Below are positions 28,343 to 57,154 of a stretch of DNA of 64,000 nt, in pieces. Origin of the DNA: Oceanicoccus sp. KOV_DT_Chl (GTDB lineage Bacteria > Pseudomonadota > Gammaproteobacteria > Pseudomonadales > Dasaniaceae); assembly GCF_900120175.1 (NCBI RefSeq), contig NZ_FQLF01000005.1:684501-748500 (forward strand), written 5' to 3'. Every line of letters starts with the position of its first letter. Within the stretch, counting starts at the first letter, position 1. The position numbers and the translations under genes are program-made. The notes beneath the pieces were generated by a model. It was given only the letters and a program-made list of their open reading frames with translations. It made no database searches and was not told the origin of the DNA.

Positions 28343-31300
28343 CTACCACTTAAACCGTCCAATCAGTCGTCTCAAACCACCCTTCTTTGTCGCTGACTTC
28401 TCGGCATTTGAAGAACCTCTATCGCCAACATCACTACTATCAAACTTAGCCTCGTCAATTTTTGCGGCTATCTGTTCCAATGAATTCACCAAAATATCCA
28501 TCGGCGAGATAGTTACGGACAATTGTTGCTCGACGGCATAAATTATGTCCATTGCCAGCAGGGAGTGGCCACCAATTTCAAAGAAATAATCCTCGACACT
28601 AATATCCAACTCAGCATTTAGGGCTGCGCACCAAATCTCAGCCAGCATTATTTCAGTAGCTGTCCGCGGAGCAATGCGTTCCTGCCGTTGACCGCTGCCC
28701 ATTGACGGTTGCGGCAGCGCCTTGCGATCAACTTTGCCATTGGGTGTGCGTGGCATTGCCTTCAGCTCTACGAAAAGTTGTGGAATCATGTAGTCTGGTA
28801 AGTGCTCCCGCAAGAAACGACGCAATTCCGAATTGGTGACTTCCCCTCCCGCTTCAAATACTGTGTACATCACCAGACGCTTATCGTTAACAGAAAATTC
28901 TTTGACCGCTGCCGCACACTCATTCACCCCCGGGTGATAACCCATCACATTTTCGAGTTCGCCAAGCTCAATCCGGAAGCCGCGTAACTTCACCTGATTA
29001 TCTATTCGTTCAAAGTATTCCAGCCGCCCATCACTGTGCCAGCGCACCCGATCACCTGTACGATACATTTTTTTTGCGGCCATACTTGCAGCAAAGGGAT
29101 CCGTTAAAAACCGCAAAGCTGTTTCCTCTTCCCGATTTAAATAACCGGCGGTAACGCCATAACCACCGATATACAATTCACCGGCAACACCAATAGGTAC
29201 AGGCTGCTGGTATTCATCCAGCACATAGCATTGGGTATTTGCGATCGGCTTACCAATAAGAAGCTGTTTAAAATCCTTGCTTAACAGTTCACAGGTAGAC
29301 CAGATAGTTGTTTCCGTCGGGCCATACATATTCCAGACTTCCACACCTTTATTCACCAATTCCTCAGCCAAAGCTAACGGTAGTGCTTCGCCGCCACATA
29401 AAACTTTAAAGCCTTGCCGGGGCTGCCACCCCGCCGCCAATAACAATCGCCAACTACTAGGTGTTGCCTGCATAACAGTGACAGCATTCGCAGCGAGTAG
29501 ATCACATAGCTTATTGCCGTCCATCGCCTGCTCTTGCTCTGCAATAACGACCGTTGCACCTACCATCATCGGCAGAAATAATTCCAGCCCGGCAATATCA
29601 AATGACAATGTCGTTACTGCCAGCAAAATATCCTCTGCTACAAGACTGGGTTCTTCCGCCATTGAATTGAGAAAGTTAGCAAGCGCCCCCTGTGGCACTT
29701 TCACCCCTTTAGGCTTACCGGTCGAGCCGGAGGTAAATATCACATAAGCCAAAGAGTCTTGGGACAATTTAATATTTGGCTGACGATTATCCCGAGCGCT
29801 GATGTCTGCCGCGTCGCTATCGATTAAAATCCGTCGGCAAGGATAATCGCTTAATGTATCAGCAAGACCAGATTCAGTAACCAGCACGGACACACTGCCC
29901 GTCTCGAGCATCTGCAATAAACGACTGGCAGGGTAAGCGGGGTCTAGAGGAATATAGGCAGCTCCCACTTTCCATATCGCCAACAAACTGGCCACCATTC
30001 GCACATCACGCGACAAACAAACACCAACATAATCGCCACTGGCCACACCGGTTGTTAACAGGGTATGGGCCAATTGATTGGAATAGCTATCCAGCTCAAC
30101 ATACGTTAATGATTCACTCCCACCCCGCACGGCTATTTTGTTACCCTGAGCACTCACAGCCTGATAAAAATGATCGAGAAATAAAGGCTGCCCATAATCT
30201 CGACGGGTGTCATTCCAGCTCGCCATCATGGCAACATCCTTAGCACTGGCAGCAGCTAATTTGTACAGCGGTGTCTCCGGCCGCGCTGCAACCTGGGAAA
30301 GAATCTGACTAAAGCTATCGGCAAATCGTTGCGCGCTATCATGCTCAAACAGAGCGACGGGATACTCCAGACCACCAACTAATCCGCTACTCTGACGCTT
30401 AACCCAGAAATCAATATCCGTTTGCACACCGGGACGATCAACGTTGATTTGCTCTCTCTGCAGCGAATTAAATTCTTCGGTACGATTACGCGTATCCTGA
30501 AATAAAAAGAATGCCTGGAATATAGCTGAGCGAGAGCGGTCTCTCTTTGGTTTCAGTTCCTGCACCAGCAATTCATACGGCACATCCTGATTGGCATACC
30601 CATTTAGGCAGGTTTGTTTCACCTGCTGTAACCAACTATTAAAAGAAGCACCCGGCTCGATGCCAAAACGCAACACGATGGTATTGACAAAAAACCCCAG
30701 CAAACCACTGGTTTCATCCTGACCACGGCCAGAAACCGGCGCGCCGATTAAGATATCCTGTTGGCGACTGTGCCGATGCAGCATCAAAGCATAGACCGAC
30801 ACTAACAACATAAATAAAGTGCAGCCCAACTCTTTGCACTTGTGCTCCAGTGAAACAACCTCTTCCTCAGTGAGTGACCATAGCACCGCTTCGGATCGAT
30901 GCGGCTGACCCACCGGCCGATTAAAATCTTCCGGTAAGTTAAGGATCGGCAACTCGCCGCCCAATGTATCCAGCCAGTAATTGAGCTGCTGATCCATATG
31001 GCCGGATTGCAGCAATTCACGCTGCCAAATAGCATAGTCGCTGTACTGTACCGGCAGCTCATCCAAAGGGTTTTGTTCACCCTGTGACAAAGCGTTATAC
31101 AATACGCACAATTCATGCAGAATCACGTCAAAAGACCAGCCATCAAATATCAGATGATGTATCAACAAAAACAGCACATGTTCCTGATCATTAATGGTAA
31201 ACAGCGCCGGCCGAAACAAGACATCACTACTCAAATCAAAACTATGCATCGCCTGCTGTTTTAAAAAGCGATGTAAAGTCATGTCCCCATTGATAACTTC

Positions 31301-34300: not shown

Positions 34301-34744
34301 AAGCAGCATGATCAACTCATAGCGGGCATCTCCCAATTTACGCAGCCAAACAAATAGCAAAGGACCATCTTCTAAGTTCAATGGTTTAAGCGCCACCTCC
34401 TGATAAAGGCTATCCAGCGCTTGCTGTTTTTCTGCTGCAGCCAGCTCACTATAATCGGCAAAATCTAGCTGCAGATCTTTTGCTTGCTGAAGACACAACT
34501 CATCCGCCAAGGAAGAAAAAGTAGCGCGCAAAATATCGTGACGAGCGATAAGTGTATTAAACGCTTTTTCCAGTAACACAGGGTTTATCTCACCATCGAT
34601 AGCGACGGCCACGGCTTCATTAAAGGCGATATTGGCCTCGGCGCTCATTTTGCATGAGGCAACGACTTCCCTTTGTGGCGCGGTGGTCGGACTAATACGT
34701 AGAATTTCGCCACCAGCAAACGGATTGAAGTTTGCTTCGCTCAT
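28343..34744 (-). CDS. Non-ribosomal peptide synthetase, two modules (C-A-T-C-A-T)
   Basis: 2133 residues. Condensation 1 (about 15-440) has HHAIADG near residue 147. Adenylation 1 (about 460-950) has YTSGSTGQPKG and GPTETT, and carrier 1 has LGGHSLLG near 1006. Condensation 2 has HHLIFDG near 1198. Adenylation 2 has FTSGSTGKPKG, and carrier 2 has IGGHSLLAMD near 2060. Reading the ten specificity positions by eye gives DILQLGMVWK and DILQLGMIWK, close to the glycine code as I recall it. No epimerase, thioesterase or reductase domain; the chain ends in a basic tail (KKGGLRRLIGRFKW). It overlaps the upstream synthase by four bases, so the two are translationally coupled and probably act in sequence. 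Substrate calls are inference. Confidence 0.93.
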   Translation of the reverse strand: MSEANFNPFAGGEILRISPTTAPQREVVASCKMSAEANIAFNEAVAVAIDGEINPVLLEKAFNTLIARHDILRATFSSLADELCLQQAKDLQLDFADYSELAAAEKQQALDSLYQEVALKPLNLEDGPLLFVWLRKLGDARYELIMLLHHAIADGWSQGLLLSELAELYSREGDCSEMQPAPSFFDFADQQGASMAANADIDYWLERFKQLPPTLDLPLDKTRPLLRSFEATRVDFELDHALVQRLPKAASLLKSSLVNYVLAGYFTLLYRLTGNTDIVVGLPVAGQAAMHRLGQVGHMVQLLPVRIGLDAAMPFAEVVKQVKTEVLNASDHPNFTFGQLLEKYAVDRSRVPLVSTIFNIDQPMALLEFGAATGSVRGLPRAGENFELFLNVVPTSDQLTIEVTYSTALFEQATIDAWMQALQTILQQSIVEGQLALSSFVLSDDLPAVLQASNQTEREVKYADLVSAFAEQVAHNPSGVAVIANNHSLSYRELDDLSTRLALYLKTQQINEGDTVAICCQRSENLLIATLAILKLGAAYLPLDPAFPEDRLVYMLEDSGAVAIVEDELAPSRVKQTALKHIELGSAMAENGLNDVLDPLMSSANRMAYTIYTSGSTGQPKGVCIQNSAMMNFLESMAASPGLCASDKLLAVTTLSFDISVLELFLPLMVGATTVIANSDEVMDGEKLAVLIKSNQISALQATPSTWRMLLASRWVGQSNNMGGGLKALCGGEPLPADLAAALLPKVGELWNMFGPTETTVWSACKRITEVDTAISIGKPIANTQCYILDENLKPLPESVPGELFIGGKGVTLGYHRREELNAERFIQHPDYGRIYRTGDSAKLLASGELQHLGRLDDQVKVRGYRIELGEIETALAESEAIAMAAVYLWERSADDVRLVACLVLSDNNKLASDALDAAALRDQLSARLPAYMVPQHFIAVDHIPLTPNGKLDRRALAKPELEQDVQQQVAAANDFERRISDLWCEVLNIREVGVTDDFFLLGGHSLLGTQLFAKISTEYGVNLSLNNLFLAPTIRKQAKLVIESLKDDISIPAIHSYANYEGLPPASSQQQRIWYLEQIEQDSMAYNLAASFKLTGSLDIAVLQKCFALIVERHSVLRTNFIHTDKGLVQSIRPVLTIDLQPQLLPEEVINGDMTLHRFLKQQAMHSFDLSSDVLFRPALFTINDQEHVLFLLIHHLIFDGWSFDVILHELCVLYNALSQGEQNPLDELPVQYSDYAIWQRELLQSGHMDQQLNYWLDTLGGELPILNLPEDFNRPVGQPHRSEAVLWSLTEEEVVSLEHKCKELGCTLFMLLVSVYALMLHRHSRQQDILIGAPVSGRGQDETSGLLGFFVNTIVLRFGIEPGASFNSWLQQVKQTCLNGYANQDVPYELLVQELKPKRDRSRSAIFQAFFLFQDTRNRTEEFNSLQREQINVDRPGVQTDIDFWVKRQSSGLVGGLEYPVALFEHDSAQRFADSFSQILSQVAARPETPLYKLAAASAKDVAMMASWNDTRRDYGQPLFLDHFYQAVSAQGNKIAVRGGSESLTYVELDSYSNQLAHTLLTTGVASGDYVGVCLSRDVRMVASLLAIWKVGAAYIPLDPAYPASRLLQMLETGSVSVLVTESGLADTLSDYPCRRILIDSDAADISARDNRQPNIKLSQDSLAYVIFTSGSTGKPKGVKVPQGALANFLNSMAEEPSLVAEDILLAVTTLSFDIAGLELFLPMMVGATVVIAEQEQAMDGNKLCDLLAANAVTVMQATPSSWRLLLAAGWQPRQGFKVLCGGEALPLALAEELVNKGVEVWNMYGPTETTIWSTCELLSKDFKQLLIGKPIANTQCYVLDEYQQPVPIGVAGELYIGGYGVTAGYLNREEETALRFLTDPFAASMAAKKMYRTGDRVRWHSDGRLEYFERIDNQVKLRGFRIELGELENVMGYHPGVNECAAAVKEFSVNDKRLVMYTVFEAGGEVTNSELRRFLREHLPDYMIPQLFVELKAMPRTPNGKVDRKALPQPSMGSGQRQERIAPRTATEIMLAEIWCAALNAELDISVEDYFFEIGGHSLLAMDIIYAVEQQLSVTISPMDILVNSLEQIAAKIDEAKFDSSDVGDRGSSNAEKSATKKGGLRRLIGRFKW

Positions 34745-37700
34745 GGTTTGCCAACCTCAATGTACTGGCCTTTATTTTTCGGATCTTCAATAAAGTAAGC
34801 CGGTTCACCGCGTGCATTTTTACCTAGCCTGGCACCTTCAGGAATAGCGGGTCTCTCACTCAAAAAGCGCTTGGCAGCCACCATATCCCCTTCAATCAAT
34901 CCATGACAAACTAATTGGGCCAATGACTTTTTAAATGCTTTTAGAATTTTTTCTATATCCGCTTCGCTATGTTCGGTAGTAAGAAAATTAGGACGGTATT
35001 GCTGGATATGAATACCCTCCAGAGTCATCAGGGTAAATAACATATGCCCCCAATGTGCACTGGTCGGCACCGACACATAAAAAAATGAAGCAAAGTATTC
35101 AAAGCCCACAGCGCATTTCATTTCCTCGATAAACGTTTTCGCCGTGGCCGTCATCGCTGCAGTTTTTTGCTCCAGCGTTTCGTAGAGTACAGAACCTTCC
35201 TGTTTGATACGGGTTAAAATAGCGTTGGCTGCCGCCAGGGCGATGGGATGTCGAACAAAGGTACCTGCAAAAAACGTCACTCCCACTTCCGGGATCGATT
35301 CATCACCGAATTGCCAAAAACCGCCATCCAGTGCATCCATAAATTTAGCCTTACCACCGATGATGCCAATCGGATGACCACCCCCAACCACTTTGCCGTA
35401 TGTTCCCAGATCAGCATCGATGCCGAAGCGCTCGCGGATACCTCCGGCAGCAACACGAAAGCCAGTCACCACTTCATCCAGTATCATCGCCGTACCAGTT
35501 TCTTCAGTGATAGTGCGAATGCTCTGCAAATATTGCTGATCGTGAAATTGCGGTTTGCGACTTTGCACGGGTTCCACCAACACGGCCGCCAACTCAGAAC
35601 CAAGATCCTTGATCACTTCCAAACTTGACGCCTCTCCCCAGGGCAGCACTAACATATTAGCTGTGGCCTCACGGGGAATCCCCGGAGCAGCAGGTAGTGC
35701 CTGATAGTTTTTACCCGGACGGTTAATAACTTCATCTGTAATACCGTGGTAACTGCCCTCGAACATGACTACTTTTTTACGCCCGGTTACGGTTCGCGCC
35801 AAACGAATCGCACCCACAACAGCTTCCGACCCAGTACTGGCAAAACTACAACGCTCATTACCAGTCAGCTCACAAAACAGTTCGGCAACGGTGCCTGCCA
35901 ATGATGACTGCGGGCCAGTCTCAATACCCATCGCTAATTGTTGCTGTACCGCTTGCGTGACAAAGTCCGGCGAGTGCCCAAAAAATATTGGGCCAAATCC
36001 ATTGGAAGTATCAATCAACTCATTACCATCGATATCCCACAATTTCGAACCTTTGGAACGCTCTGTCACAATCGGAAAAATAATCTCTTTCCACTCGGGA
36101 TTAAAACCTGACACCGTACGCGGGTCAGCGAGAATTTTTCGATATTTCTGTGTGTATGCCTTGGAACCAGCATATTTTTTCTGGTATTGATCAAGCACTT
36201 CATCCAACCACTGCCGCTGGGCTTTGGTCAGGTTTACCCCCACCGATTCCTTGACAATACGTGTGCCTGGAGTTTGTCTGGCGCCCTGCGCTTTATTCGT
36301 TTCCATAGCTGGCTTATCGGCGGCAGGTAAAACAGGCTGGGATGACATCTGCGCAGATGATACTGGCTGCGACCCTACTGCAGCTGACGTGCCGGACAAA
36401 GCCTGCAATTGCATCTGCATAATTTTTAATTGCTGCTGGATCAGCAACTGTACATCGCTACTCATATTCGAAGGCCCGGCCATACCCGTAGGCATCATCT
36501 GTGCCAGTGTCGCCTGAATGTCGGCTGCACCACCAACCGTAGTATCGACCATCGTTGACGCAGCAACAGTCGTAGTGGCAGGAGGTACCTGCTCGGCGAC
36601 AAAATCACTGAGCTCTGCAATCGATGAATAGTCTTCAACCAAATGACGGAAAGTTAAACCGATAGAAAACTCCTGATCGATAGCAGTAGCAGCTTGAGTC
36701 AATGCCAATGAATCCAAACCAACCTCGCTAAAATGCGCTTCGGCCTCGACCTCAGCAAGCTCAAGCCCGGTCACATCTTCTAAAATATTGCGCAGCTTTA
36801 GCTCAATTTGCTGACGGTGTTGTTCTGCACTCATTGTCACTTCCTGCATTACTGGTGGTTTTTGTATGGGCTGCTGTATGGGCTGCTGGGTAGACAGCTG
36901 CGAGCTGTCTGCAACGGCTGGCGCACTATTTTTTTCCAGCCAAAAACGTTTTTTATCAAAATTATAATTAGGCAACTTTACTTTGCTCAGGGGCCCTGGA
37001 CCTTCACGCTGACGCCAATCAATCTCAAAACCATTCACCCAGAGCGTATTTAAACATTGATTAAATTCATCGATAAACTTTTCATCAACGCAGCTGCCCG
37101 ACGCACAACTGGCCAAGGTATTTTTTACTTTAACCGGTTTGGTGGAAACCACATTATCTGTCGCCACCAAGCTGGACAATGCGGCCCCTGGGCCGACTTC
37201 CACAAAAGCCAGCTGCTGTCCCTGATAATATTCACGGGCACTATTCACTGCCGCTGAAAATAATACAGGCTGACGTAACTGCATTGCCCAGTAGCCAGGG
37301 CTCATTGCTTGCTCGGCGGTCAGCAGCTTGCCGGTTGCAGTAGAAAAAATGGGAATTTGTGGTGCTTTGCCCTGCAGAGAAGCGGCGAGCTTTTCAACTT
37401 CGCCTACTATGGGCTGCATCATGTCGGAATGAAAAGCATGACTGGTGTGCAGCACCGAACACGCCGTTTTCGTTTCAAGTAGACTGGCTGCTGCCCGCTC
37501 AATCGCCTCAGTGGGGCCCGCCAGCACGATACGCTCGGGGCGTTTACTGCTGCCAGACACAAGCCTGCATCCAGCAAGTGACTTATCGATTCAGTTTTTG
37601 CCTGCACTGCCAGCATTTTTCCCGCGGGCATGGTCTGCATTAATGCGCCTCTGGCAGCAACCAGACGCAGAGCCTGATCAAAATCAAAAACGCCGGCCAA

Positions 37701-43917: not shown

Positions 43918-43939
43918 CTGCTTACCTCTCCTTAAACTG

Positions 43940-44686: not shown

Positions 44687-44854
44687 GAAATACCATAAAT
44701 ATTGAAAAACGCATTAAACTTATTGTCGTTGAGCTTGCCCCTGAATAAATGGCATAACTACACTTGGCAATAAATTTGAACACGTACAACTTTAGTGCAT
44801 AAAGGCATGCTGATTTTCACTCACAGAATCAGCCTACCTCCAAAATAATAAAGG

Positions 44855-45721
44855 CTATTTATTTACCAAGCGCGTACTCACATTAGCTAACCAAGCCGAT
44901 ATCTGTTCAACGGCAAATTTCTGGTGCCGGGGATCAGTGATAATGTGATTGGATTCCACCAGGTAATCGAGTTGTAACAAATTCTTGAAATCGATATTTT
45001 TAAAACTGTCCAGGTACTGGGACTTATAATTATAATCAGGTTCATCGCCAGTAAACATAACGTAGTTAGGAACCCCTCGGCCAATAATTTTCCTTAAGCC
45101 CTCAGCAACTTCTTCTTTTGGAGGGAAAACACGGGAATAGTTTGGCACCTCAAAATATTCATCCTCTATTCCCGAGTGCTCTGCAGCGCTTTGTTTTTTC
45201 TTCTCACCACGCAACGCAGCTAGCAAACGCTTAAAGCTACTCTTCCAGCGTTCTGCAACTAAAAAACGTGATGCGTAATACTGCACATGATACCGAAAAG
45301 TACGATAACAATAGGGATCAATTTGAGCAAAAGCTACTACCCTGTCATCGATAAGAGCCGTTTGGTAGGCAGCATCAGCTCCTGAACACAATCCAAACAA
45401 TACAAAACTTTTGCAACCGCGCTTTCGCTGTAGATAATCCATAATTTCGGCAGCCTCTTTAGGCGCTGAAACCTCAAAAGAATCCGTACCTCGACGCGGT
45501 TCGCTATCCCCAATACCGGAAAAGTCGAAGCGAATAACTAAGTGGCCCGCGGCAGCAAATGATCTCGCCATTTTTACCGACAAACGGCAGCTACCAATAT
45601 GATGCATGACACCCGAGTTAAAAATAACGACCGCTGGCCGCTCAGGTTGAATTTGATCCGGTTCAGAAATCACACCCACTAGCGGTACGGGCTTACCTAT
45701 ACGAACTGCTCGTTCCTTCAT
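44855..45721 (-). CDS. Alpha/beta hydrolase, exosortase-system hydrolase 1 type (first copy)
   Basis: 288 residues, ATG 45721 with AAGG seven bases upstream. FNSGVMHHIGSCRLSVKMAR and FDFSGIGDSEPRRG match the paralogue at 43069. The elbow is GLCSG with C112 at the nucleophile position; late ESNHIITDP supplies a His. There is an extra lysine-rich insert (GEKKKQSAAEHS). Genes of this type are reported in type 1 exosortase genomes next to a second hydrolase; here the partner is the gene just upstream. A role in releasing or transferring acyl or peptidyl chains from the neighbouring carriers is my inference. Confidence 0.8.
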   Translation of the reverse strand: MKERAVRIGKPVPLVGVISEPDQIQPERPAVVIFNSGVMHHIGSCRLSVKMARSFAAAGHLVIRFDFSGIGDSEPRRGTDSFEVSAPKEAAEIMDYLQRKRGCKSFVLFGLCSGADAAYQTALIDDRVVAFAQIDPYCYRTFRYHVQYYASRFLVAERWKSSFKRLLAALRGEKKKQSAAEHSGIEDEYFEVPNYSRVFPPKEEVAEGLRKIIGRGVPNYVMFTGDEPDYNYKSQYLDSFKNIDFKNLLQLDYLVESNHIITDPRHQKFAVEQISAWLANVSTRLVNK

Positions 45722-45812
45722 CTTGCTACCTTATATTACCTTCATGACTAAACCAAAATACCTGACGCCTTACTACTACCGTCAAACAACTGCTCGCCGA
45801 TAAACCACTATG

Positions 45813-46577: not shown

Positions 46578-46580
46578 TAT

Positions 46581-49500
46581 TTACTTCCTTCCAAATAGCT
46601 TTTTAATGAGCCCTTTTGGCTCCTTGGTATCACCAGACTCAGTGTCGCCGCTACTTCCTTCAACATCGTCAGCCGGCTTATCATCTCTTTGCCCGTCAAT
46701 CTCACTCGCAATTTGTTCAAGTGTGTGCAGCACCATGGTGGCCTGATCGAGACGCACACCAAACTTTCGTTCCACTCTGACGATGATTCTAATGGACAAT
46801 AGCGAATGGCCACCGATGTCAAAGAAATTTTCATTCAACCCCACGCGGTCAATGCCCAGTGCGTCCTGCCATATTTTGGCCAGCGCTCGCTCCGTTGAGG
46901 TTCGCGGTGCAACATAACTGTCTTCCACTGCGAAGGGATCTTTTAGCTGCAAACGGTCAATTTCACCGCTCTCGCTGACAGGCATTTCATCCAGCTCAAT
47001 AAATTGCTGTGGAACACTGCCTAATGCCAATACGTCTTTGGCAAAGCGACGCAACTCACTAACCGTTATATTATGATCGTAATCCGGCACAAAATGCGCA
47101 ATCAACCGTCGTTCACCCGCTTCGTCAAGATGCGAACGCACAACAATAGCCTCAATAGCCTCGTTGGCCAGCAGCACTTGTTCAATTTCAACAATTTCAG
47201 GGTCAACATCAGGATCGTGAACCACTTCATTACTCACGGGCTCCGGTGCCGCAAAAGGCGCTAACAGCTCAGCCTGCAACGCCGCTAATTCATAGACACT
47301 GACTACCGTTTGCGGCATAGAGCGCTGTCCGAGCACATGCAGCAAAGCAGCTGTACCCTCTTCTGCACCAATACCTAATTCCAACGTTCGCTCTAAGCTG
47401 GCGTTATCATTTCGACCGACGCTATCCACCGCCCGCCGCAATGCGGATACATCAACAATACGCTGCATGGTAAAGTCATCAACCTGCACCACCACCTTAC
47501 CCTGATCATCACAAATACGAATATCAAACTTGGCAATGTCATGATTATGAACACCGCCATCGCCAGATTTATAGACCACATGGCTAAACATCTGCGGGCT
47601 CAATTCACCACTAAAGCGCAAACGTCCATAGCCCACCGGTACATATAATTCATCTTGCGCATGGTATTCAGGAATGATCACTTGCGCGCCGGCTGTGGCC
47701 ATATCCAAAATGGCAGGGTGCAGATGCATGTGCTGTAATTCATCGCAATAGCTTTCGTCTAATTGCAAATCGATACACGCTTGCTCCCTGCCATAATGCA
47801 CTTTGTTCAACACTTGCCAGCGGGCGCCAAAATCCAAATAGGGGTGATGGTCAGCATCATGGAAACCCTGCACCCCTTGTTGGCAATTACTCATTATGGC
47901 CGACAAATCCAACTGCTCGTTAACATCATCGCCGCGTCGAATAGAACCCCTCACATGTTCGACGACATCGCCGTCGCTATCACTGGTGATCGTAAAGTCA
48001 GCACCTTGCTCGCGATAAAATAAACTCACCTGCAGTGCTTTATACTCATGATCAGCAACAAAAAAAGGCAACTCAAAAGCCAAGTCCTGCATCGCTACTG
48101 GGCCAGGGCCCTTAGCCTCAGCAAAGGCAGCTCTTGCCAATTCGACAAATCCGGAGCCGGGAATTAATGCGCCACCCTCTTTAATGCGATGCTCGCTCAG
48201 CAACCAGTAACTTTCCACATCAAACAAGGTTGAGTACACAGCCTGCGTTTCATCTTCGCGAATACAGCGATCCAACAAAGGATGCTCCACCGGCCTTCCC
48301 GCGGGCTGATAGCGCTGCTTGCTACCATCAGCAATCGCCGCGGCCATTCCCACGTCTCGCCAAGCTGGCCAATTTATCGAAATGACATTGGCATCAACAC
48401 AGGCATGAGCAAAGCTATCAAGGAAGGCATTAGCGGCGGCATAATCAACCTGTCCCGGCAATCCAGAAAAAGCACTGGTCGATGAGTACAGCACCATAAA
48501 GTCCAACGCCGATAAATCCAGCAGCTGCTGTAGCACTAAAGTTCCAGTGACTTTAGGTGCCAGTACTTGCGCCACCTGCTCAATACTCCTGAGCTGAATT
48601 AACTCATCATCGATGACACCGGCGGTATGAATGACTCCATTTATAGGGCCCAGTTGCTGCTGAACCTGATCAATCGCCGCACTCATACTGCTAACATTGT
48701 TGACATCTGCTTGGACCAGCATGACCTCGGCACCGCGCTCTTCCAGCGCCAGAATTCGACTTAATGTAGGTGCTTCAGCCACCTGCTCAGCAATAAGCGC
48801 TTGCCAATATTGTCGCTCGGGCAAATTACGTCTAGCCAATAACGCCACTTTAACCTGCGCGTCCTGTAACAAGGCCTCGGCGGCAACCAAGCCCAGACCG
48901 CCGGTTCCCCCGGTAATAAGATAAACACCCTGATCCCGCACCGCGGTGGCAGTCGTCTGGTTGCCAACCACATGCTGGTAACTTTGACTAAACCGCGCCG
49001 CACCGCGCAAAGCGACTGCGCCTTCTGTAGCGGTAAGCTCTGCTAATAAAGTTTCAGCAAGGCTAGCCTCATGGGCTACTGCCTGCTGCAGTGAAAGATC
49101 TACAGAGACGCAGGAAATATTCGGCATCTCGTGCGGAATAACCCGTGCCGGCCCATTCATTAACGCCTGCAGTGCGGAGCCCATTTCCTCTCCTGCCACC
49201 TGCTGTGCGCCCGCGGTCAACAATAACCAGCGCTGATCGTGTTCCCAGCCTTCATTACCGACAGCTTGGGAAAGATAAAACAAGCTATCGAACACCAGTG
49301 TTTGCTGCTCAGCTAAATTGTCCAACGAACAGCCTTGTGCAGGATCCAGCTCTAGCGCCAAACTGTGAATAACATAATTGATTAGCTGGCCGTCTTGCTG
49401 CAACTTGTCGACAAGATACACGAAATCATCACTATTGCCTGCTCGTACCGTCATCGGCGTGGCGTCGACTTGCAGACGATTACCAATGCGTACATCGATC

Positions 49501-52390
49501 ACGGTTGCGCCGCGGCTTTGCAATGACGCCACCAGCGCTGTATTCAAAGTATGTTGGCCAGCCAATAACAAGACTTTGCTATTGCTTAAATCAGCCGTTA
49601 ATTCCAAGCGCGGCTGCCGCTGCCAAACCGGCTGATACAACCATTCATTTAGCTGTTCACGGCGCTGCAGGGCTTTACCAGCCAGCGACTTGCCAGGCTC
49701 AACCCAATGCCGGACGTGGTCGAAGGCATACGTGGGGATGGATACTCGACGCCGATCCTGATCGGCAAATAAACCGGCTTTATTAAAAATACAATTTCCC
49801 TGCCACAGCCGACCCAAAGCAGCCAGCATGAACGGCACATCCGCAACGACTTCGTCCGGGTGCCGCAGTGATGACTGGATAGTATGCTGCAAGGTCTTTT
49901 CAGGATGCATCGCAGCGAGACTGCTTAATGTCCGACCGGGTCCCACTTCCAACAAATTGTATTGGTTGGTTTCAAGCAGGCAACCCACACCATCACTGAA
50001 TCTAACGGTGTTGCGTAGGTGCTTAACCCAATACTCAGGGTCAGTAGCCTCGCGATCTTTTATCCAATCACCGGTCAGGTTGGAAATAAACGGTATATTA
50101 GGCTCACTCAACGAGATCGAACGAACATAATCCCCAAACGCTCCAAGAATTGGCTCCAGCATGCTGGAGTGGGCAGCAATATCGATATGCACCCGCTGAT
50201 AGGAAAACTCTCTGGCCGCGAGTACGTTTTCCAATGCCGCCAGCGCTTGTTTAGGCCCCGACACCACAGACAAGCCGGGCGCATTTTGAGCGGCGACTGA
50301 CAATTGGGGCGATAATAATGACTGCAATTGTTTTTCATCTAACTGCACACTGAGCATGCCGCCTTCAGGAACAGTCTCAAACAGCTGGCCACGCAACGCC
50401 ACCAAGCCCAATGCGTCCTTCAGTGACAACACCCCGGCGATACATGCCGCGGTATTTTCACCCATGCTATGGCCGATCAATACCTTGGGTTCTACCCCCA
50501 TCGACATCCATAATCGCGCCTGCGCATACTGAGTAACAAATAGTGCTGGAAGTGAACGGCTGGGGCGCTCTAATTCCCGTCCCGCTGTCGCCAAATCATC
50601 CGTCTCGGGATACAGCAACGCCTTTAAATCATAATCAATAAATTCTTCCAGCAGTTGCAAACACTCATCGACTGTTGACCTGAAGACTGGCTCGTCGAGA
50701 TATAAACCGGCGCCCATTCCCGCATACTGCGCGCCGCCGCCAGCGAACATAAACGCGAGCTCGCGCTCAACGTCCGGGTGTCGGCCGACTCAATTCGTCC
50801 GCGCTCGGTACCATCCAATACCGTAACCGCATCCGCGGTTGATTGCACGACAGCAAAACGCCGCTTGTTAAAACTGCGCCGCCCTACTGCCAGGGTATAA
50901 GCCACATCCGCTAGCTGCGGAGCGGCATCCTGATTAGCCGCGTCATCCGGATCCAAAAATTCAGCCAATCGATCTGTAGCTCTCTGTAATGCCTGATCAC
51001 TACGCGCTGAAATCATCAACAACTGCCAATCGCGTGGACAGCTACCACTTTCTAAAATTTCTGCCTCTTCAACAATGATGTGGGCATTAGTCCCACCCAC
51101 ACCTAAGGAACTTACTCCAGCACGACGGCTGTCGGCACACTGCCAATCGCGCAACTCCGCATTGACAAAAAATGGACTGGCAGAAAAATCTATTGAGGGA
51201 TTTGGTGCTCGATAGTGCAGTGTAGGCGGGATTTTTTTATGCTTTAGTGACTGCACCACTTTAATTAAACTGGCGACACCTGCGGCTGTATCAAGGTGAC
51301 CGATATTCGATTTAACGGAGCCAATGGCACAGTATTGTTTGCGATCATGTCCGGCACCATAAGCTTGGGTGAGTGCGGCAACCTCAATAGGATCACCGAG
51401 CTGCGTGCCCGTACCATGACACTCAACATACTCAACCGATTGCGGATCTATTTCCCCAATTTCCAATGCTTCATGAATGGCTGCGGTCTGGCCATCAACA
51501 CTGGGCGCCAAATAACTTACTTTACCTGCACCATCGTTATTAATAGCGGAGGCCTTAATGACCGCATGAATATTGTCTTTGGCGGCAATGGCATCATCAA
51601 GGCGACGTAATACCAGCACCCCTGCACCACTGCCAAAAACCGTACCCTTGGAACTCGCATCAAACGGCCGGCAATGTCCATCGGGAGACAGAATTTCGCT
51701 ATCTTTAAACTGATAGCCCCTACGGTGCGGCAAGTCGATGGTAACGCCACCGGCTAAAGCCATATCACACTCGCCGTTTAATAAGCTTTGTACTGCAGAA
51801 TGCACAGCGACTAATGAGGTGGAACAAGCGGTTTGGACATTAATGCTTGGACCTTTTAAGTCAAAGCAATAGGACACTCTAGTGGTGAGAAAGTCTTTAT
51901 CATTACCCGTATGACGAACCAGAAAGAAACCCAGGTCATCCATCAAGTCTGGATTAGTCAGCAAATTATAGGGCATGTATGCATTGTGGCCGGAACCACC
52001 AAACACCCCAACGGAACCGGAAAAGTCAGCGGGATCATAACCGGCATCTTCAAATGCCTCCCAGCTTACTTCAAGAAAATGCCGATGTTGCGGATCCATG
52101 ACTTTCGCATCCATAGGACTGAAGCCAAAAAAGCCCGCATCGAAATTTTCCATATGCTGCAGAAACATACCGGACTTTACATAATTTGGATGCTTAATTT
52201 GCTCCTTTGATACACCCGACGCCAACAACTCTTCATCGGTAAGCATAGTGATAGACTCATGCCCGCGCTGCAAATTATTCCAGTACTGGCTTGGGCTATC
52301 AGCATCAGGAAAACGACAAGCCATACCCACTATCGCTATATCGCTGCTTCCCGCCTCAAAATCATCAGCCTGTTCGTTTTCATCAATCAT
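46581..52390 (-). CDS. Type I polyketide synthase (KS-AT-KR-DH-orphan A subdomain-carrier), frame interrupted by an apparent one-base deletion
   Basis: About 1936 residues with one base restored near 50769. Ketosynthase (15-440): QTACSTS near 190, ECHGTGTQLGDP, NIGHLDTAAG. Acyltransferase: AFMFAGGGAQYAGMG, GHSMGEN, and AAHSS where HAFH or YASH is usual. Ketoreductase: YLITGGTGGLG, YSSTSAF, GQVDYAAANAF. Dehydratase-like region: LSEHRIKEGGALIPGSGF. A free-standing adenylation C-terminal subdomain follows (about 46935-47200, SELRRFAKDVLALGSVPQQF), then the carrier IGGHSLLS and a basic tail (GLIKKLFGRK). The first frame ends at a stop near 50624; AFMFAGGGAQY continues in the next frame. It lies 72 bases after the upstream NRPS. 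Confidence 0.9.
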
Positions 52391-52462
52391 TATTACTTTT
52401 AACCTTGTATTTTTTTGCAGCCCAATAACAATTCATTGGCCGATTGAACTTTACGCCCCAAA

Positions 52463-55400
52463 CTAGCGACGGCGACGTCGCCCCGCAGCCGCTTTTCTCG
52501 CAGCCGCCCGGGCCTGACTTTGATCCAGCGTTTTTGCGCCATCACCATCACCACTAATAAATTCGACCAATGCTTCTATCGTTGTGTATTTAAACAAATC
52601 TGTCATCTGTACCGGTTTGGACACTTTTTCCTGTAACTCTTTTAACACTTGCACAATCAATAAAGAATGGCCGCCAATATCAAAAAAGTTATCCCGCACA
52701 CCGACGGAAGGGATGTCCAGCGCTCGCTTCCAGATATCGGCAATCATGATTTCCGCATCATTTTCCGGCGCCTTTGAATCTTCCGTGGCGGTCGACGATT
52801 GTTGCGGCTTGGGCAAACTCTTGCGGTCTATTTTTCCATTGGGTGTTAAGGGCAGTTCATGCAATGCCACAAACAAAGAGGGCACCATAAAATCTGGCAG
52901 CTGCTCCTTTAAAAACAACTTTAGCTCAGAAGCATCCAAATCCTGAATCGTGTGGCAACGAACATAAGCGACCAACCGTTTATCACCAGGCGAATCCTCC
53001 CGCAAGATTACCGCTGCCTCCATCACTGATTGATGTTGACGCAATAGGGATTCTATTTCTCCCAGCTCAACCCGATAGCCACGGATCTTGACCTGATGAT
53101 CGACCCGCCCCATGCACTCTAAACGGCCATCAGCAAGATAGCGGGCAAGGTCACCGGTGCGATACATGCGTGCGCCTACGCCCTCGGAGTACTTATCCTC
53201 AATAAAAACAGTATCGGTTAAATCCGCTCGATTGTGATAGCCGCGGACCACGCCATCGCCAGCAATAACCAATTCGCCCGCCAAACCAATGGGCATCGGC
53301 TGCTGATTTTCATCAAGTATATGAATTTGTTGATTAACCAATGGGCGACCGATAGACACTGACTGGGCATTGCCGCCTTCGACATCTCCGGTGCTCGACC
53401 AAATTGTAGTCTCGGTAGGTCCATACATATTTGAAACGCGACCGCTTACCAGAGACTTAAGCTCGCTCGCTAGCTCCGGAGGAAACGCCTCACCCCCAAC
53501 CATCATATGCTTAAGAGCAGCCAATCCCGAGCGCGCCTGCTTGTCGGCTGCTAACATTGTCGCCATCGACGGTGTGCATTGAAAATGGGTAACGTTATGC
53601 CGTTGAAATAACGCCGGCAAACTATAATCATCAACGGCAGTAGTATCCGCCTTAAGCACTTGCTGGCTATATTCACGCAGCTGATTGAGGTACGGCAGAT
53701 GTTCGAGCACCAGTTCGGTATCGATACCAAAATCTATTAGACAAGCAATTTCATCTATATCTGATGCTTTTACTTTATCCACCATTTGCATCGCACTCTT
53801 GGGAGTACCAAACAAACCGCTGGTGTGAAAATAGCGCTGAAAGGAAAACTCCAGCAACGCATCCATATCCTCGTCAGAAATAGTTTCGAAAAAGTCATCA
53901 AGGGTTTTGCCTTGCTGCTCCGACATTTTCTTAAAAGTAGGAAATTGCCAGGCCGCCGCTTTGACTAAAAACATCGCACTTTTTAGATAGTCTTTCAATG
54001 GTTGCCGCACTTGTTCCTGCACCGTCGCCGCATCCTCACCGACAAACGTATGCAGCATTAGCGTCACTGTGCCTTCGCCAGGATGGCCAGCCGCTTTCCA
54101 GGCCGACCGATACGCTTTCACTTTTTCAGCGACTTCTTCAATGGTCTGCCCGAGTAAATGGGTCAGCACATTAGCGCCAATTTCGGCGGCGCGCACATAA
54201 CTATCAATATTACCTGCGGTAGTAACCCATAGCGGCAACTCTGCCTGCAGCGGACGCGGTAACGTTCGAACAGCGACCTCTTTGCCATCTGGCCCCGGGA
54301 AGTTCAAGGTTTCACCACGCCACAATTTACGTACTGTTTCTGCCGACTCAAACATAATATTTTTAGCGTCGGAAAAATTTTCCGGTTTAATGGCAAAATC
54401 CGGTGGCGCCCACCCCGCAGCTATAGCGATTCCCGCACGACCATTAGACAAGTTATCAACCACCGCCCACTCTTCTGCTACCCGAATAGGGCTATGTAAC
54501 GGCACTACACAACTACCGGCACGAACAGAAATATTTTCGGTGATTGCAGCAACTGCGGCACCGGTAACAGCAGGATTGGGAAATAAACCGCCAAATGCGG
54601 CGAAGTGCCGTTCGGGTGTCCACACTGCATTGAAACCATTCTGATCGCCGTATTTAGCACCCTCTAACAGCAATCGATACTTATCCTGATCGTACTGATT
54701 TTCGTCAGTTGCCACATTCCAATAGAATAAACCAAACTCGACGGATTGATCCGGGTAGGCGCTAAGCGGAATACCCGCATCGGATTTCTGGCGTACGGCA
54801 TCCGCATACAACACTACGGTCAAACCTCGAGCCAAAGTCCAAAATATTTCCAATACTGATATATCGAAGGAGATACTAGTCACGGCCAACCAGGTTCCCG
54901 GTGCCGGTTCCACCCGCTGATCCATACCGGCAAAAAAGTTAATCACATTGCGGTGCTCTACCATCACCCCTTTGGGTTTACCGGTAGAACCCGAGGTATA
55001 AATCATATAAGCCAGGGACGCGGGATCAACCACCTCGCCCAAATCACTTTCATCATAGGAGACCAACGCGCCCTGCAACTCATCCACAATAATCCGCTTG
55101 ACCCCATAACCGCCCAGCAAAGTGGCCAGCTTACGGTGAGTGATTAGCATTTCGAGACCGGAGTCTGCCACCATATAAGCCAGGCGGTCTTTTGGGTAAA
55201 CCGGGTCCAGCGGGACATAAGCACAACCCGCCTTCAACGTCGCCAGCAGCGCAATCACCATATCCAGCGAGCGATCAACCAGAATACCGACCAAATCACC
55301 GCTTCTGGCACCACTGTCTAATAAGTGCCGCGCCAACTGATTGGCTCTGCTATTCAGTTGCTGGTACGTTAGCTGCTCACCCTCGAATACATAAGCGATG

Positions 55401-57154
55401 GTATCTGGCTGACTCAGTACCTGACGCTCAAATAGTTGGTGCACGCAATCATTAATATCGCTATCGCCAGCCGTGCCGTTCCACTCAGCCAACTGCGCGA
55501 GTTCTGCTGCAGGAACTATTGGATACATCGATAACAGTGCTGCCTGATCGGCCATCACCCCGTCCAGCAACACGATAAATTGTTCAAATAGACGACTGAT
55601 AGCAGTCGCATCCAACGCTCGCGCATCGTAGCGAAAATGCAAGCTGCTGCCATCCGTCGGCACCACAATCACTAACTGATTATGCTCCGTTGGTGCCAGC
55701 ACCGAATAGTCGGATAAACTCTGCACTCGATCCAATCGTATAGGGAACTCTTCACAACCCAGTGACCCCGCCAAAGCAGGTACACGGGCGCGCAAGTCCG
55801 ACAGATAACTCACTCGCTGCTCCGCTTGCTGCAAATCAACCGCAAAGCCCTGTTGCCAATGCTGAAAAGTCTCTCCCCCCTCAACATTGACCACCAATGG
55901 CACTACAGGCGCAAAATAATCCTGCAACACAGGGTCCAATTGCTGCAAACTAAGGGGACGGTACGCCAGCGTATAATGGGTTTTACGCCCCAGCCGGCTC
56001 AATAACAGCGCAAATACCGAAGTGATAAAATCGCCACCCAATCCAGTCAGAGGCAGCACCTGTTCACACTGCTGCCAATCTGCTTGCTGTCGACGTTGCT
56101 GCTGACTATACGGCGCCTCAAGCGGTTCAGACAACAATAGCCGTCGCTCCCAGTAAGGCTCGTAGCGAACCAGCTTTCGTACGGTTTCAGTTAACAACTG
56201 CTGCTGATCGCTTTCTATCACTGGCAAACAATCACCTGCTTTAAGCCCACAGGCTGCCAGTACGGCAACAACATCAACAACTTTGCCATCCAAATCAGTC
56301 AACCTGGTAAACCGAATACCCCCATCAGCAGTCGCAACGGTTAAGGTTTTACTGCAACAAGAAATAATGCTGCCAACAGCGGTGTTAGCTTCCAGCGCAA
56401 CAAATTCAGGTGTGGACACTAGTAGATGCTGGGCCCCCAATACGATACGGGGAGCGATCACCGGGTTGGGATAAGGCCCGTAATCCAGCGCCCGCACCAG
56501 CCGATCAATATCTCGAAAACCCTGATTCCAATCAATGGTCGCCGCTGCCACCGGGCGATCTACCAGCCCAAAGTAAGAGCGCCCTGCTTCACCTTGACTA
56601 ACGCCCTCTAACGCACCTTTTGCCAAGCCATCCAATAGCTCGGTAAACGACTCTATTGCCGCCTGATAACACTTTGCATTAAGGGTAAAAACCGTTTCGC
56701 CGGGGACAATCGGGAAATATTTTTGTGCCAGTAAATTACCTTTATCTACGTCGCTGGTCATGATGTGCCAGCTAACCCCATGCTGCTGTTCGCCATGCAA
56801 TAAGGCCCACACGGGCGCATTCAGACCCGCATAGGCTGGCAGCGGTCCATCATGAAAATTTATCGCCAATACCTTGGGGATCGCCAGCACTTCAGCCGGT
56901 AACATTTTGAGGTTGGTAATACTAAAAAGGAAATCAATCGGCTTATCACCTACAGCGGGTATCAGCTCGTCAATTTTAGAAATATGCTTGATAGCGTGTT
57001 CACAGCACCATTGCACAATACTCTGATTATTAGTAACTACCATTTCAACCTGATAATTACTGCTCAGCAATAGCTCGCAACACTGGACCAGCAGTGACTG
57101 CTCCCCCAACACCACACAAGATTGCTTAGTATTAGGCAAATCCATTTTAGTCAT
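52463..57154 (-). CDS. NRPS loading protein: formyltransferase, half condensation domain, A domain with inserted luciferase-like monooxygenase, carrier
   Basis: 1563 residues, ATG 57154 with GGAG upstream. Formyltransferase (1-260) has the N99-H101-D135 triad in INFHDGPLP and SDVDKGN. Residues about 320-540 resemble the second half of a condensation domain but have no HHxxxDG. The adenylation domain starts near 560 (IYTSGSTGKPKG near 720). It is interrupted at about 795-1165 by a flavin-dependent luciferase-like monooxygenase (EFGLFYWN, WTPERHF, FPNP), then resumes (CTPSMATML, YGPTETT, TPNGKIDRK). The specificity positions read DILQMGMIWK. The carrier is IGGHSLLIVQV. The C-terminus is strongly basic (GRRRRR). 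The insert matches the MupA/Atu3671-type family known inside A domains. It probably starts a chain on an N-formylated, oxidised small amino acid (inference). Confidence 0.92.
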   Translation of the reverse strand: MTKMDLPNTKQSCVVLGEQSLLVQCCELLLSSNYQVEMVVTNNQSIVQWCCEHAIKHISKIDELIPAVGDKPIDFLFSITNLKMLPAEVLAIPKVLAINFHDGPLPAYAGLNAPVWALLHGEQQHGVSWHIMTSDVDKGNLLAQKYFPIVPGETVFTLNAKCYQAAIESFTELLDGLAKGALEGVSQGEAGRSYFGLVDRPVAAATIDWNQGFRDIDRLVRALDYGPYPNPVIAPRIVLGAQHLLVSTPEFVALEANTAVGSIISCCSKTLTVATADGGIRFTRLTDLDGKVVDVVAVLAACGLKAGDCLPVIESDQQQLLTETVRKLVRYEPYWERRLLLSEPLEAPYSQQQRRQQADWQQCEQVLPLTGLGGDFITSVFALLLSRLGRKTHYTLAYRPLSLQQLDPVLQDYFAPVVPLVVNVEGGETFQHWQQGFAVDLQQAEQRVSYLSDLRARVPALAGSLGCEEFPIRLDRVQSLSDYSVLAPTEHNQLVIVVPTDGSSLHFRYDARALDATAISRLFEQFIVLLDGVMADQAALLSMYPIVPAAELAQLAEWNGTAGDSDINDCVHQLFERQVLSQPDTIAYVFEGEQLTYQQLNSRANQLARHLLDSGARSGDLVGILVDRSLDMVIALLATLKAGCAYVPLDPVYPKDRLAYMVADSGLEMLITHRKLATLLGGYGVKRIIVDELQGALVSYDESDLGEVVDPASLAYMIYTSGSTGKPKGVMVEHRNVINFFAGMDQRVEPAPGTWLAVTSISFDISVLEIFWTLARGLTVVLYADAVRQKSDAGIPLSAYPDQSVEFGLFYWNVATDENQYDQDKYRLLLEGAKYGDQNGFNAVWTPERHFAAFGGLFPNPAVTGAAVAAITENISVRAGSCVVPLHSPIRVAEEWAVVDNLSNGRAGIAIAAGWAPPDFAIKPENFSDAKNIMFESAETVRKLWRGETLNFPGPDGKEVAVRTLPRPLQAELPLWVTTAGNIDSYVRAAEIGANVLTHLLGQTIEEVAEKVKAYRSAWKAAGHPGEGTVTLMLHTFVGEDAATVQEQVRQPLKDYLKSAMFLVKAAAWQFPTFKKMSEQQGKTLDDFFETISDEDMDALLEFSFQRYFHTSGLFGTPKSAMQMVDKVKASDIDEIACLIDFGIDTELVLEHLPYLNQLREYSQQVLKADTTAVDDYSLPALFQRHNVTHFQCTPSMATMLAADKQARSGLAALKHMMVGGEAFPPELASELKSLVSGRVSNMYGPTETTIWSSTGDVEGGNAQSVSIGRPLVNQQIHILDENQQPMPIGLAGELVIAGDGVVRGYHNRADLTDTVFIEDKYSEGVGARMYRTGDLARYLADGRLECMGRVDHQVKIRGYRVELGEIESLLRQHQSVMEAAVILREDSPGDKRLVAYVRCHTIQDLDASELKLFLKEQLPDFMVPSLFVALHELPLTPNGKIDRKSLPKPQQSSTATEDSKAPENDAEIMIADIWKRALDIPSVGVRDNFFDIGGHSLLIVQVLKELQEKVSKPVQMTDLFKYTTIEALVEFISGDGDGAKTLDQSQARAAARKAAAGRRRRR

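What the first reader, a model, noticed from the sequence alone, without database searches (positions are those of the whole stretch)
28343..57154. Modular NRPS/PKS locus carrying the exosortase-type hydrolase cassette
A roughly 29 kb minus-strand locus combines three types of synthase protein with two pairs of alpha/beta hydrolases of the kind otherwise reported beside type 1 exosortase (PEP-CTERM) loci. It lies between prsK-prsR-prsT and surface-glycan genes. In ordinary exosortase loci, as I know them, the hydrolase pair accompanies a small acyl ligase, decarboxylase and carrier protein. Here those appear to be replaced by full assembly lines. This suggests a peptide/polyketide decoration of a surface polymer or an exosortase-related small molecule. 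It is my best candidate for an undescribed system.
Basis: partly seen in the sequence, partly recalled or inferred. Interest (0 to 1): 0.85.

Follow-up and report, generated by a model that had tools for sequence, protein, structure and literature searches.

The report
Assembly lines inside an exosortase locus
A gammaproteobacterium carries, inside the gene cluster that builds its surface sugar coat and sorts surface proteins, two small-molecule assembly lines, each with its own pair of odd 'hydrolases' that probably unload the product; the same pair is found with different assembly lines in other bacteria.

Summary
At 28343-57154 (minus) lie two short assembly lines: I, FT-A(Gly)-LLM-PCP plus KS-AT-KR-DH-PCP; II, A(Val-like)-PCP-KS-AT-ACP-aminotransferase plus C-A(Gly)-PCP-C-A(Gly)-PCP. 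Two hydrolase-2/hydrolase-1 (H2/H1) pairs go with them; no thioesterase domain was found. Exosortase, FemAB, deacetylase and chain-length genes start 12 kb beyond the window, so the lines sit inside an exosortase/EPS locus.

The hydrolases match TIGR03100/TIGR03101 best but at about half the cut-offs: relatives, not members. Both layouts recur in other bacteria, H2 usually directly behind a carrier domain (48 of 66 two-gene pairs). In canonical loci that carrier is a small ACP, with ligase and decarboxylase.

H1 has Cys in the catalytic-Ser place (96 of 99 rows); H2 has Arg (102 of 102). Best reading: H1 is a Cys acyltransferase and H2 its non-catalytic partner, unloading carrier-bound acyl/peptidyl groups, here probably onto the surface glycan. 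Chemistry, product and acceptor are inferred. New leads: last-module glycine (22 of 25 lines) and a shared C-terminal tail on the last synthase (27 of 36, post hoc).

The parts
52463..57154 (-). Line I loading protein: formyltransferase - (rest of a C domain, judged by eye) - adenylation domain (Gly code) with an inserted LLM/MOX monooxygenase - PCP, 1563 aa, Arg-rich C-tail
   Evidence: Pfam; TIGR04020 486 bits over cut-off 244; code DILQMGMIWK (last K assumed); LgrA and PuwE among the solved matches
50624..52390 (-). Line I PKS, first frame: KS and linker
   Evidence: Pfam; KS motifs present
46581..50750 (-). Line I PKS, second frame: AT-KR-DH-(trace of an A-domain C-terminus)-PCP, tail ...GLIKKLFGRK
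   Evidence: Pfam, NCBIfam, tail; single 1966-aa protein in L051
45813..46577 (-). H2B, alpha/beta hydrolase without nucleophile (Arg109), pair of line I
   Evidence: TIGR03101 102.5 bits, below 202.75; model pLDDT 89; groups with type I L051, SH-aLRT 98
44855..45721 (-). H1B, Cys-nucleophile alpha/beta hydrolase, pair of line I
   Evidence: TIGR03100 70.0 bits, below 168.45; groups with type I L051, SH-aLRT 98
43940..44686 (-). H2A, alpha/beta hydrolase without nucleophile (Arg110), assigned to line II
   Evidence: TIGR03101 104.5 bits; groups with Marinobacter type II, SH-aLRT 89
43069..43917 (-). H1A, Cys-nucleophile alpha/beta hydrolase (Cys118, His262), TTG start
   Evidence: TIGR03100 81.6 bits; model pLDDT 86; C118 aligns with Ser of solved hydrolases
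41847..42977 (-). Membrane acyltransferase 3
   Evidence: PF01757 9.9e-27; a homologue follows H1 in 6 of 9 Marinobacter-type line II loci (L093, L095, L097, L098, L101, L102, L103, L105, L111)
37419..41483 (-). Line II, first frame: A (Val-like code DAFWLGGTFK) - PCP - KS - AT start
   Evidence: Pfam, code, motifs
34741..37560 (-). Line II, second frame: AT end (HAFH) - ACP - class III aminotransferase
   Evidence: Pfam; PLP Lys motif; single 2213-aa protein in L068
28343..34744 (-). Line II NRPS: C-A(Gly)-PCP-C-A(Gly)-PCP, no TE, tail ...GGLRRLIGRFKW
   Evidence: Pfam, codes, tail
27206..28135 (-). Cupin/JmjC-like protein next to line II
   Evidence: PF13621 and PF08007 below gathering scores; homologues beside line II in L068, L069, L111, L116, L118 and also in the type I locus L112
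20958..27051 (+). prsK, prsR (frame-split, overlap 23400-23508), prsT
   Evidence: NCBIfam; receiver domain in 23020-23508
57810..63943 (.). GT2, DegT aminotransferase, GT1, UDP-GlcNAc 2-epimerase, acyltransferase 3: start of the glycan genes
   Evidence: Pfam; GT2 and DegT homologues also side by side in L051, L069, L080 and Marinobacter loci

Best explanation
The H2/H1 pair is an off-loading unit for carrier-protein thioesters that can be coupled to different acyl-building lines. In ordinary exosortase loci it serves a small ACP that goes with a ligase and a decarboxylase. In this genome it serves two short assembly lines inside the exosortase/EPS locus. Line I would make a formylated, oxidised glycine extended by one reduced ketide. 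Line II would make Val-(beta-amino ketide)-Gly-Gly or a close variant. H1 takes the chain from the last PCP onto Cys118 and passes it to an acceptor. H2 has Arg in the nucleophile place and no conserved His, and acts as a non-catalytic partner that binds carrier or acceptor. The likely acceptor is an amino or hydroxyl group of the locus's surface polysaccharide or its lipid-linked unit, perhaps with the membrane acyltransferase 3 in the last step. Shown from sequence: domains, synteny, exosortase context, Cys/Arg pattern, carrier adjacency. Inferred: chemistry, product, acceptor.
For: Locus inside an exosortase/EPS locus: exosortase TIGR02602 128/106 bits, FemAB 350/260, deacetylase 399/276, chain-length 329/279. 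In 12 other genomes an exosortase match lies on the contig of the H2 gene, 4 to about 40 kb away: G007, G090, G340, five Marinobacter, G394, G398, G406, G424; the named ones were chosen for checking because the coordinates looked near. XrtA-model match in 12 of 16 genomes with a strong H2 match against 110 of 374 others, one-sided Fisher P = 3e-4, relatedness not corrected. A carrier domain ends within 600 nt upstream of H2 for 48 of 66 two-gene pairs, against 6 of 574 similar-sized ORFs in the same loci. H1 Cys in 96 of 99 rows and H2 Arg in 102 of 102, canonical ones included; AF2 models put both at the elbow between strand and helix, and both align with the Ser of solved hydrolases. H2 labels on its tree need 13 changes against 33.7 in shuffles, H1 13 against 32.0. 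PKS-terminal carriers fall with NRPS H2-facing carriers and not with PKS ACPs, SH-aLRT 87. No TE domain in either line. A TIGR03100-type predicted hydrolase stands next to an acyltransferase 3 in the B. cenocepacia EPS cluster Bcam1330-1341 (PMC3584217, passages; the mutants tested there were bcam1330-1332, not the hydrolase gene).
Against: No biochemical data. 17 of 35 named genomes gave no exosortase match and 4 of 16 order genomes no XrtA match (which scored at most 6 candidates a genome). Of 34 rows classed as fused, only 2 have a carrier nearby, and one of these two (L065) is a synthase-H2 fusion. H2A/H1A lie about 8 kb from the NRPS assigned to them, and H1A does not group with the type II H1s. 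The closest solved folds are esterases and lipases. One real exception to the H1 Cys (L117). In G038 no synthase was seen in a 38 kb contig. The exosortase match of G394 is below cut-off and broken. G396 has its exosortase on another contig.
Confidence: 0.5

Rival explanations
1. The lines make diffusible metabolites (signal, siderophore or antibiotic) and H1/H2 hydrolyse the product off the last PCP; the place in the exosortase/EPS locus reflects shared regulation or chance insertion.
For: Gly-MOX modules are known from natural products (PMC12283262, passages); LgrA and PuwE chains are among the solved matches. 17 of 35 named genomes lack an exosortase match. H1/H2 have esterase/lipase folds.
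Against: No receptor or exporter for a small molecule was recognised among the window proteins scanned (not all ORFs were scanned). The pair sits beside EPS genes in several lineages, and in canonical loci with no assembly line.
Confidence: 0.28
2. H1/H2 are type II thioesterase-like editing enzymes that clear misloaded carriers; release is by another enzyme (FemAB, acyltransferase 3 or a terminal C domain).
For: L067-L070 lines end in a C domain, which could itself release the chain. The pair is separate from the synthase.
Against: Cys in H1 and invariant Arg in H2 are, as far as I recall, unusual for editing thioesterases; no other release domain is in the window lines.
Confidence: 0.1
3. 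The frame splits are real, the two PKS genes are dead and the locus is decaying.
For: Four split genes in the window; no homopolymer of 5 or more in the stretches looked at.
Against: obgE, usually an essential single gene (recalled), is split in the same window, and the synthase motifs searched for are present, which points to sequence errors. Not proven.
Confidence: 0.07

Closest known systems
Canonical exosortase A-associated cassette (TIGR03098 ligase, TIGR03099 decarboxylase, ACP, TIGR03101, TIGR03100, amidotransferase-like)
   Same: H2-H1 order, carrier directly upstream, Cys in H1, Arg in H2, exosortase genomes
   Different: Ligase, decarboxylase and small ACP replaced by modular lines; the hydrolases score about half of the model cut-offs, and the small-ACP H2s form their own branch, SH-aLRT 95
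Burkholderia cenocepacia Bcam1330-Bcam1341 EPS cluster
   Same: TIGR03100-type predicted hydrolase (Bcam1334) next to an acyltransferase 3 (Bcam1333) among EPS genes; mutants bcam1330-1332 lose wrinkling and pellicle (PMC3584217, passages)
   Different: No assembly line among the genes of the table seen; the hydrolase gene was not among the mutants; its relation to the fused pairs of Caballeronia was not tested
A-MOX modules (myxothiazol MtaG type, recalled; PuwE MOx, PDB 6ket)
   Same: Luciferase-like monooxygenase inside a Gly-coded A domain; window code one letter off DILQLGMIWK, which a survey gives for its four Gly-MOX domains
   Different: Here an N-terminal formyltransferase makes it a starter module; in the myxothiazol case it ends the chain (recalled)
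Linear gramicidin synthetase LgrA (FT-A-PCP starter)
   Same: Formyltransferase-adenylation starter layout; best solved match
   Different: Glycine code, inserted monooxygenase, followed by a PKS
Cys-nucleophile acyl enzymes of the same fold, such as PHA synthase PhaC and Cys thioesterases (recalled)
   Same: Cys in the elbow in place of Ser
   Different: No PHA synthase among the 50 best fold matches listed; relation not shown

Membership tests
TIGR03100 hydr1_PEP | Score over the curated cut-off 168.45 | tested here: not met
   H1A 81.6, H1B 70.0 bits
TIGR03101 hydr2_PEP | Score over the curated cut-off 202.75 | tested here: not met
   H2A 104.5, H2B 102.5 bits; no match over cut-off in the genome
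H2/H1 kind, canonical members included | Cys (H1) or Arg (H2) in the nucleophile place | tested here: met
   H1 12 of 12 and H2 14 of 14 small-ACP rows; 47 of 48 and 50 of 50 assembly-line rows, the one miss being a wrong cut
Classical Ser hydrolase or thioesterase | Ser nucleophile | tested here: not met
   Cys118 and Arg109 align with the Ser of solved hydrolases
XrtA/PEP-CTERM locus | Exosortase, prs genes, FemAB, deacetylase, chain-length gene together | tested here: met
   below cut-off are the XrtA model itself 189/208, tyrosine kinase 165/231, TIGR03016 83/91, flippase 221/273 and glycosyltransferase TIGR03088 219/409
PEP-CTERM sorting system | PEP-CTERM target proteins in the genome | tested here: met
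   32 of 40 listed matches over the 16-bit cut-off, 9 with E <= 0.001; 2 of 14 control genomes also ring over the cut-off
Canonical exosortase acyl cassette | TIGR03098 ligase over cut-off 592 | tested here: not met
   Best 253 bits in the genome
TIGR04020 LLM of secondary metabolism | Score over 244.45 | tested here: met
   486 bits
Known BGC | Match to a characterised cluster (MIBiG, antiSMASH) | not testable with these tools
   No such library on hand; no synthase equivalog over its cut-off among the hits shown (lists capped at 25)
Acyltransferase activity | Transfer of acyl from PCP to an acceptor | not testable with these tools
   Needs biochemistry

The most novel reading that the evidence does not exclude
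The carrier-H2-H1 cassettes make the attachment point for exosortase, which as I recall is still unknown. They would hang an acyl or peptidyl handle on the surface glycan or lipid. With FemAB, and in analogy to the pentaglycine bridge that sortase uses (recalled), the free amine of that handle would be the acceptor for PEP-CTERM proteins. Line II fits in having a free N-terminal Val amine, a beta-amine and a C-terminal Gly. Line I, being N-formylated, does not, and exosortase is missing from many genomes with the unit.
Probability: 0.08. Interest if true: 0.92.

Novelty: new variant of a known kind. Interest (0 to 1): 0.7.

Why it matters
The exosortase-associated hydrolases are names without a function in the models and papers seen. 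The pattern found here turns them into a testable enzyme pair: it usually follows a carrier-bound thioester, has Cys in one partner and Arg in the other, and is coupled to ligase/ACP, PKS or NRPS lines. It would link modular assembly lines, known mainly for free natural products, to the building of the surface coat. Cultured Marinobacter strains carry line II next to an exosortase, so the test can be made there.

Tried and rejected
1. Equivalog membership of the hydrolases in TIGR03100/TIGR03101: rejected, below cut-off.

2. Mutual exclusion of canonical and assembly-line H2 within genomes. 16 of 390 genomes have H2 over the TIGR03101 cut-off, and none of them is among the 16 with a strong match to the window H2. 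By a rough estimate the expected overlap is also small, so this says little.

3. Amphipathic helix for the C-terminal tail: helical moment 0.57 against 0.49 in shuffles for 17 chosen tails, and 27% of shuffles reach the mean, so not supported. The tail motif was written after seeing the tails, so its counts are post hoc. The likeness to the MinD membrane tail is recalled, and no MinD over its cut-off was found in the genome.

4. PHA-synthase likeness of H1 by fold: not seen among the 50 best matches listed; the second aligner was not available.

5. Siderophore link through fabrubactin/Atu3671: the listing showed no paper on this architecture (listing only).

6. Papers saying what the hydrolases do: the phrase 'exosortase A system-associated' is in no paper held. 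In PMC1569441 the words hydrolase, ligase, acyl and decarboxylase do not occur at a word start. PMC3237569 and PMC9850573 were seen in passages and gave nothing on the hydrolases. PuwE papers: listing only.

7. Homopolymers at the frame splits: none of 5 or more in the stretches looked at.

8. The G396 exosortase is on another contig than its H2 (160087 against 322965 bases), so it was not counted as linked. Of the 18 named genomes with an exosortase match, 10 contigs were checked, picked because the coordinates looked near; 9 were linked and 8 genomes were not checked.
Full report
WHAT IS THERE. The window is G000:C5:684501-748500 of a 4.8 Mb genome. On the minus strand, in order of transcription, are: FT-A-LLM-A-PCP (57154-52463), a PKS module KS-AT-KR-DH-PCP in two overlapping frames (52390-46581), H2B, H1B, H2A, H1A, an acyltransferase 3, an A-PCP-KS-AT-ACP-aminotransferase protein in two overlapping frames (41483-34741), a C-A-PCP-C-A-PCP protein (34744-28343) and a cupin/JmjC-like protein (28135-27206). 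The synthase active-site motifs searched for are present (the G-x-S-x-G found in the NRPS lies inside a C domain). Neither line has a thioesterase or reductase domain in the Pfam lists.

CONTEXT. To the left lie prsK, prsR and prsT over their cut-offs. To the right glycan genes continue beyond the window. Of ten L009 proteins scanned there are a flippase-like (221/273) and a glycosyltransferase-like (219/409) protein, an exosortase (TIGR02602 128 bits, cut-off 105.55; XrtA model 189, cut-off 208), deacetylase (399/276), FemAB (350/260), TIGR03016 (83/91), tyrosine kinase (165/231) and chain-length protein (329/279), the last six between 11.8 and 19.5 kb past the window end. The genome has 32 of 40 listed PEP-CTERM matches over the cut-off, 9 with E <= 0.001; 2 of 14 control genomes also ring over the cut-off. 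Among 39 adenylation-type matches in the genome, only those of this locus lie in frames longer than 650 aa.

THE HYDROLASES. Their best NCBIfam hits are the exosortase hydrolases 1 and 2, at 70-105 bits against cut-offs of 168 and 203. I aligned the rows found in loci L051-L163 and the window; 10 of the 80 named loci were dropped because their contig lengths show them to be copies of loci already held. The place of the catalytic Ser is Cys in 96 of 99 H1 rows; two of the three exceptions are rows that I cut wrongly (L120, L065) and one (L117) is real. It is Arg in 102 of 102 H2 rows. The small-ACP rows show the same (12 of 12 and 14 of 14). The patterns of the scan did not include this place. 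H1 keeps His262 in 94 of 99 rows; H2 has His at the like place in about 18 of 102. AlphaFold models (pLDDT 86 and 89) put Cys118 of H1A and Arg109 of H2B between the elbow strand and helix, and sequence alignments put them on the Ser of solved hydrolases. Nearest folds are esterases and lipases. Reading: H1 is a Cys enzyme and H2 a pseudo-enzyme; this is inferred.

RELATIVES. The window H2A searched over 390 genomes of the order matched 36 at E <= 1e-10, 16 of them at E <= 1e-20. 12 of the 16 show synthase domains in the stretches I fetched. G038, G071, G285 and G255 do not: G071 and G285 are on short contigs, G255 is a fused pair, and G038 shows none in its 38 kb contig. A scan of named genomes gave 80 loci, the best of 155. 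Two layouts recur. Type I is an FT-A-LLM protein plus KS-AT-KR-DH-PCP plus H2-H1. In L051 the loading protein also has a methyltransferase that the window lacks. It is seen in Spongiibacteraceae, Oleiphilus, Granulosicoccaceae, a Bugula symbiont, an Acidobacteria and Gemmatimonadetes MAGs, and its PKS part in a Myxococcota MAG. Type II is KS-AT-ACP-aminotransferase plus C-A modules plus H2-H1, seen in Marinobacter and others. A Lysobacterales genome (L100) has both types side by side. Simpler C-A lines, small-ACP cassettes and fused H2-H1 proteins (Rhodococcus, Caballeronia and others) complete the range. The scan patterns came from assembly-line H2s, so the named set leans towards them.

CARRIER LINK. 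For two-gene pairs, 48 of 66 H2 genes have a carrier domain ending within 600 nt upstream (14 free ACPs, 34 ends of multi-domain proteins), against 6 of 574 ORFs of 230-320 aa in the same loci. Of 34 rows classed as fused, 2 have one, and one of those (L065) is a synthase-H2 fusion. In the H2 tree the labels need 13 changes against 33.7 in shuffles. H2B and H1B pair with type I L051 (SH-aLRT 98 each) and H2A with Marinobacter type II (89), but H1A does not join the type II H1s. In a carrier tree of 117 rows and only 80 columns, 12 PKS-terminal and 21 of 24 NRPS-terminal carriers that face H2 fall in one loose group of 42 rows (SH-aLRT 87), together with 9 rows labelled internal; the internal PKS ACPs lie elsewhere. 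The last PCP of the window NRPS falls in that group, although its hydrolases are not next to it.

EXOSORTASE LINK. An XrtA-model match is found in 122 of 390 genomes of the order (which scored at most 6 candidates a genome, so misses are not firm; G003 and G008 had 11). It is found in 12 of the 16 genomes with a strong H2 match against 110 of 374 others (one-sided Fisher P = 3e-4; relatedness not corrected). Of the 12 with a visible synthase, 8 have it and 4 do not (G003, G040, G008, G344). Among 35 named genomes 18 have an exosortase-family match, 16 over cut-off, and 17 have none; one of the 35 (L085) is the G038 contig again and shows no synthase. On the same contig, exosortase and H2 lie 4 to about 40 kb apart in G007, G090 and G340. 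In G394 and G398, FemAB, prsT, kinase, chain-length and deacetylase homologues run on to acyltransferase 3, H1 and H2 within about 17 kb. L063 has prsR and L064 a FemAB homologue near the pair. In the window genome the exosortase is about 32 kb from the H2 genes.

CHEMISTRY (inferred). A-domain codes, the tenth residue K being assumed: loading DILQMGMIWK; NRPS DILQLGMVWK and DILQLGMIWK; hybrid DAFWLGGTFK (the automatic read gave T for W in the last one, and alignment gave W). A survey paper gives DILQLGMIWK for all four Gly domains with MOX in its set and Val codes such as DAWWLGGTFK (PMC12283262, passages). Of 25 lines whose last protein before H2 has a readable A domain, 22 carry a Gly-type code DILQxGxxW; the exceptions are L115, L136 and L141, and L116 and L118 had no readable last A domain. 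The survey counts 93 Gly domains and 2051 A domains, so this is far from a random draw. But seven of the 22 are Marinobacter and the lines share descent, so no probability is claimed. Why the chain ends in glycine is unexplained; an unhindered thioester would ease passage to a Cys.

TAIL. The last synthase before H2 ends in a basic-hydrophobic tail in 27 of 36 cases, against 1 of 26 other synthase proteins (that one is a 413-aa KS protein), 0 of 11 LLM proteins and 62 of 1047 unrelated ORFs; shuffles of the 36 give 2.6 on average, at most 7. Both last proteins of the window have it. The motif was defined after seeing the tails, and amphipathicity is not supported. It may dock H2/H1 or the membrane; neither is shown.

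VERDICT. A real, recurrent and, within the searches named, undescribed variant of the exosortase-associated acyl cassette. How it works is a proposal, not a result. I put 0.5 on the full model with the glycan as acceptor, and more on the narrower claim that H2/H1 acts on carrier-bound thioesters.

Noticed in passing
window 14392-15587, 23020-24371, 34741-41483, 46581-52390: Four genes (obgE, prsR, both PKS genes) are split into two frames each. obgE is normally essential (recalled), so sequence errors are likely. Described only, nothing mended.
   Followed up: partly
window C-termini of 46581-50750 and 28343-34744; L051-L113: Shared basic-hydrophobic C-terminal tail on the last synthase protein before H2 (27 of 36, motif post hoc), like a membrane or docking tail.
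   Followed up: partly
L053, L057, L067-L070, L091, L093, L095, L097, L098, L101-L103, L105, L111, L113, L114, L120, L122-L124: The last adenylation domain before the hydrolase pair is glycine-coded in 22 of 25 lines from several phyla.
   Followed up: partly
L127, L130-L135, L137, L138, L147 (Rhodococcus); L143, L149, L151, L157, L159, L161, L163 (Caballeronia): H2 and H1 fused in one protein of about 590-660 aa, with no carrier found within 600 nt upstream; a third form of the pair.
   Followed up: partly
L195, L196, L197, L206, L208: A formyltransferase-like protein of about 275-320 aa lies near the exosortase in Marinobacter and others (weak matches, 20-28 bits).
   Followed up: no
window 27206-28135: Cupin/JmjC-like protein conserved beside several type II lines (and L112); perhaps an iron-dependent hydroxylase.
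   Followed up: no
L051 7991-13945: A relative of the loading protein carries a methyltransferase inside the A domain that the window protein lacks.
   Followed up: no
window 18564-20792: DUF1631 protein (611 bits) just before prsK; function unknown.
   Followed up: no
L085, L107: Record titles of two relatives (Verrucomicrobiaceae; Klebsiella pneumoniae) do not fit their place in the window's order (G038, G041); probably mislabelled MAGs.
   Followed up: no
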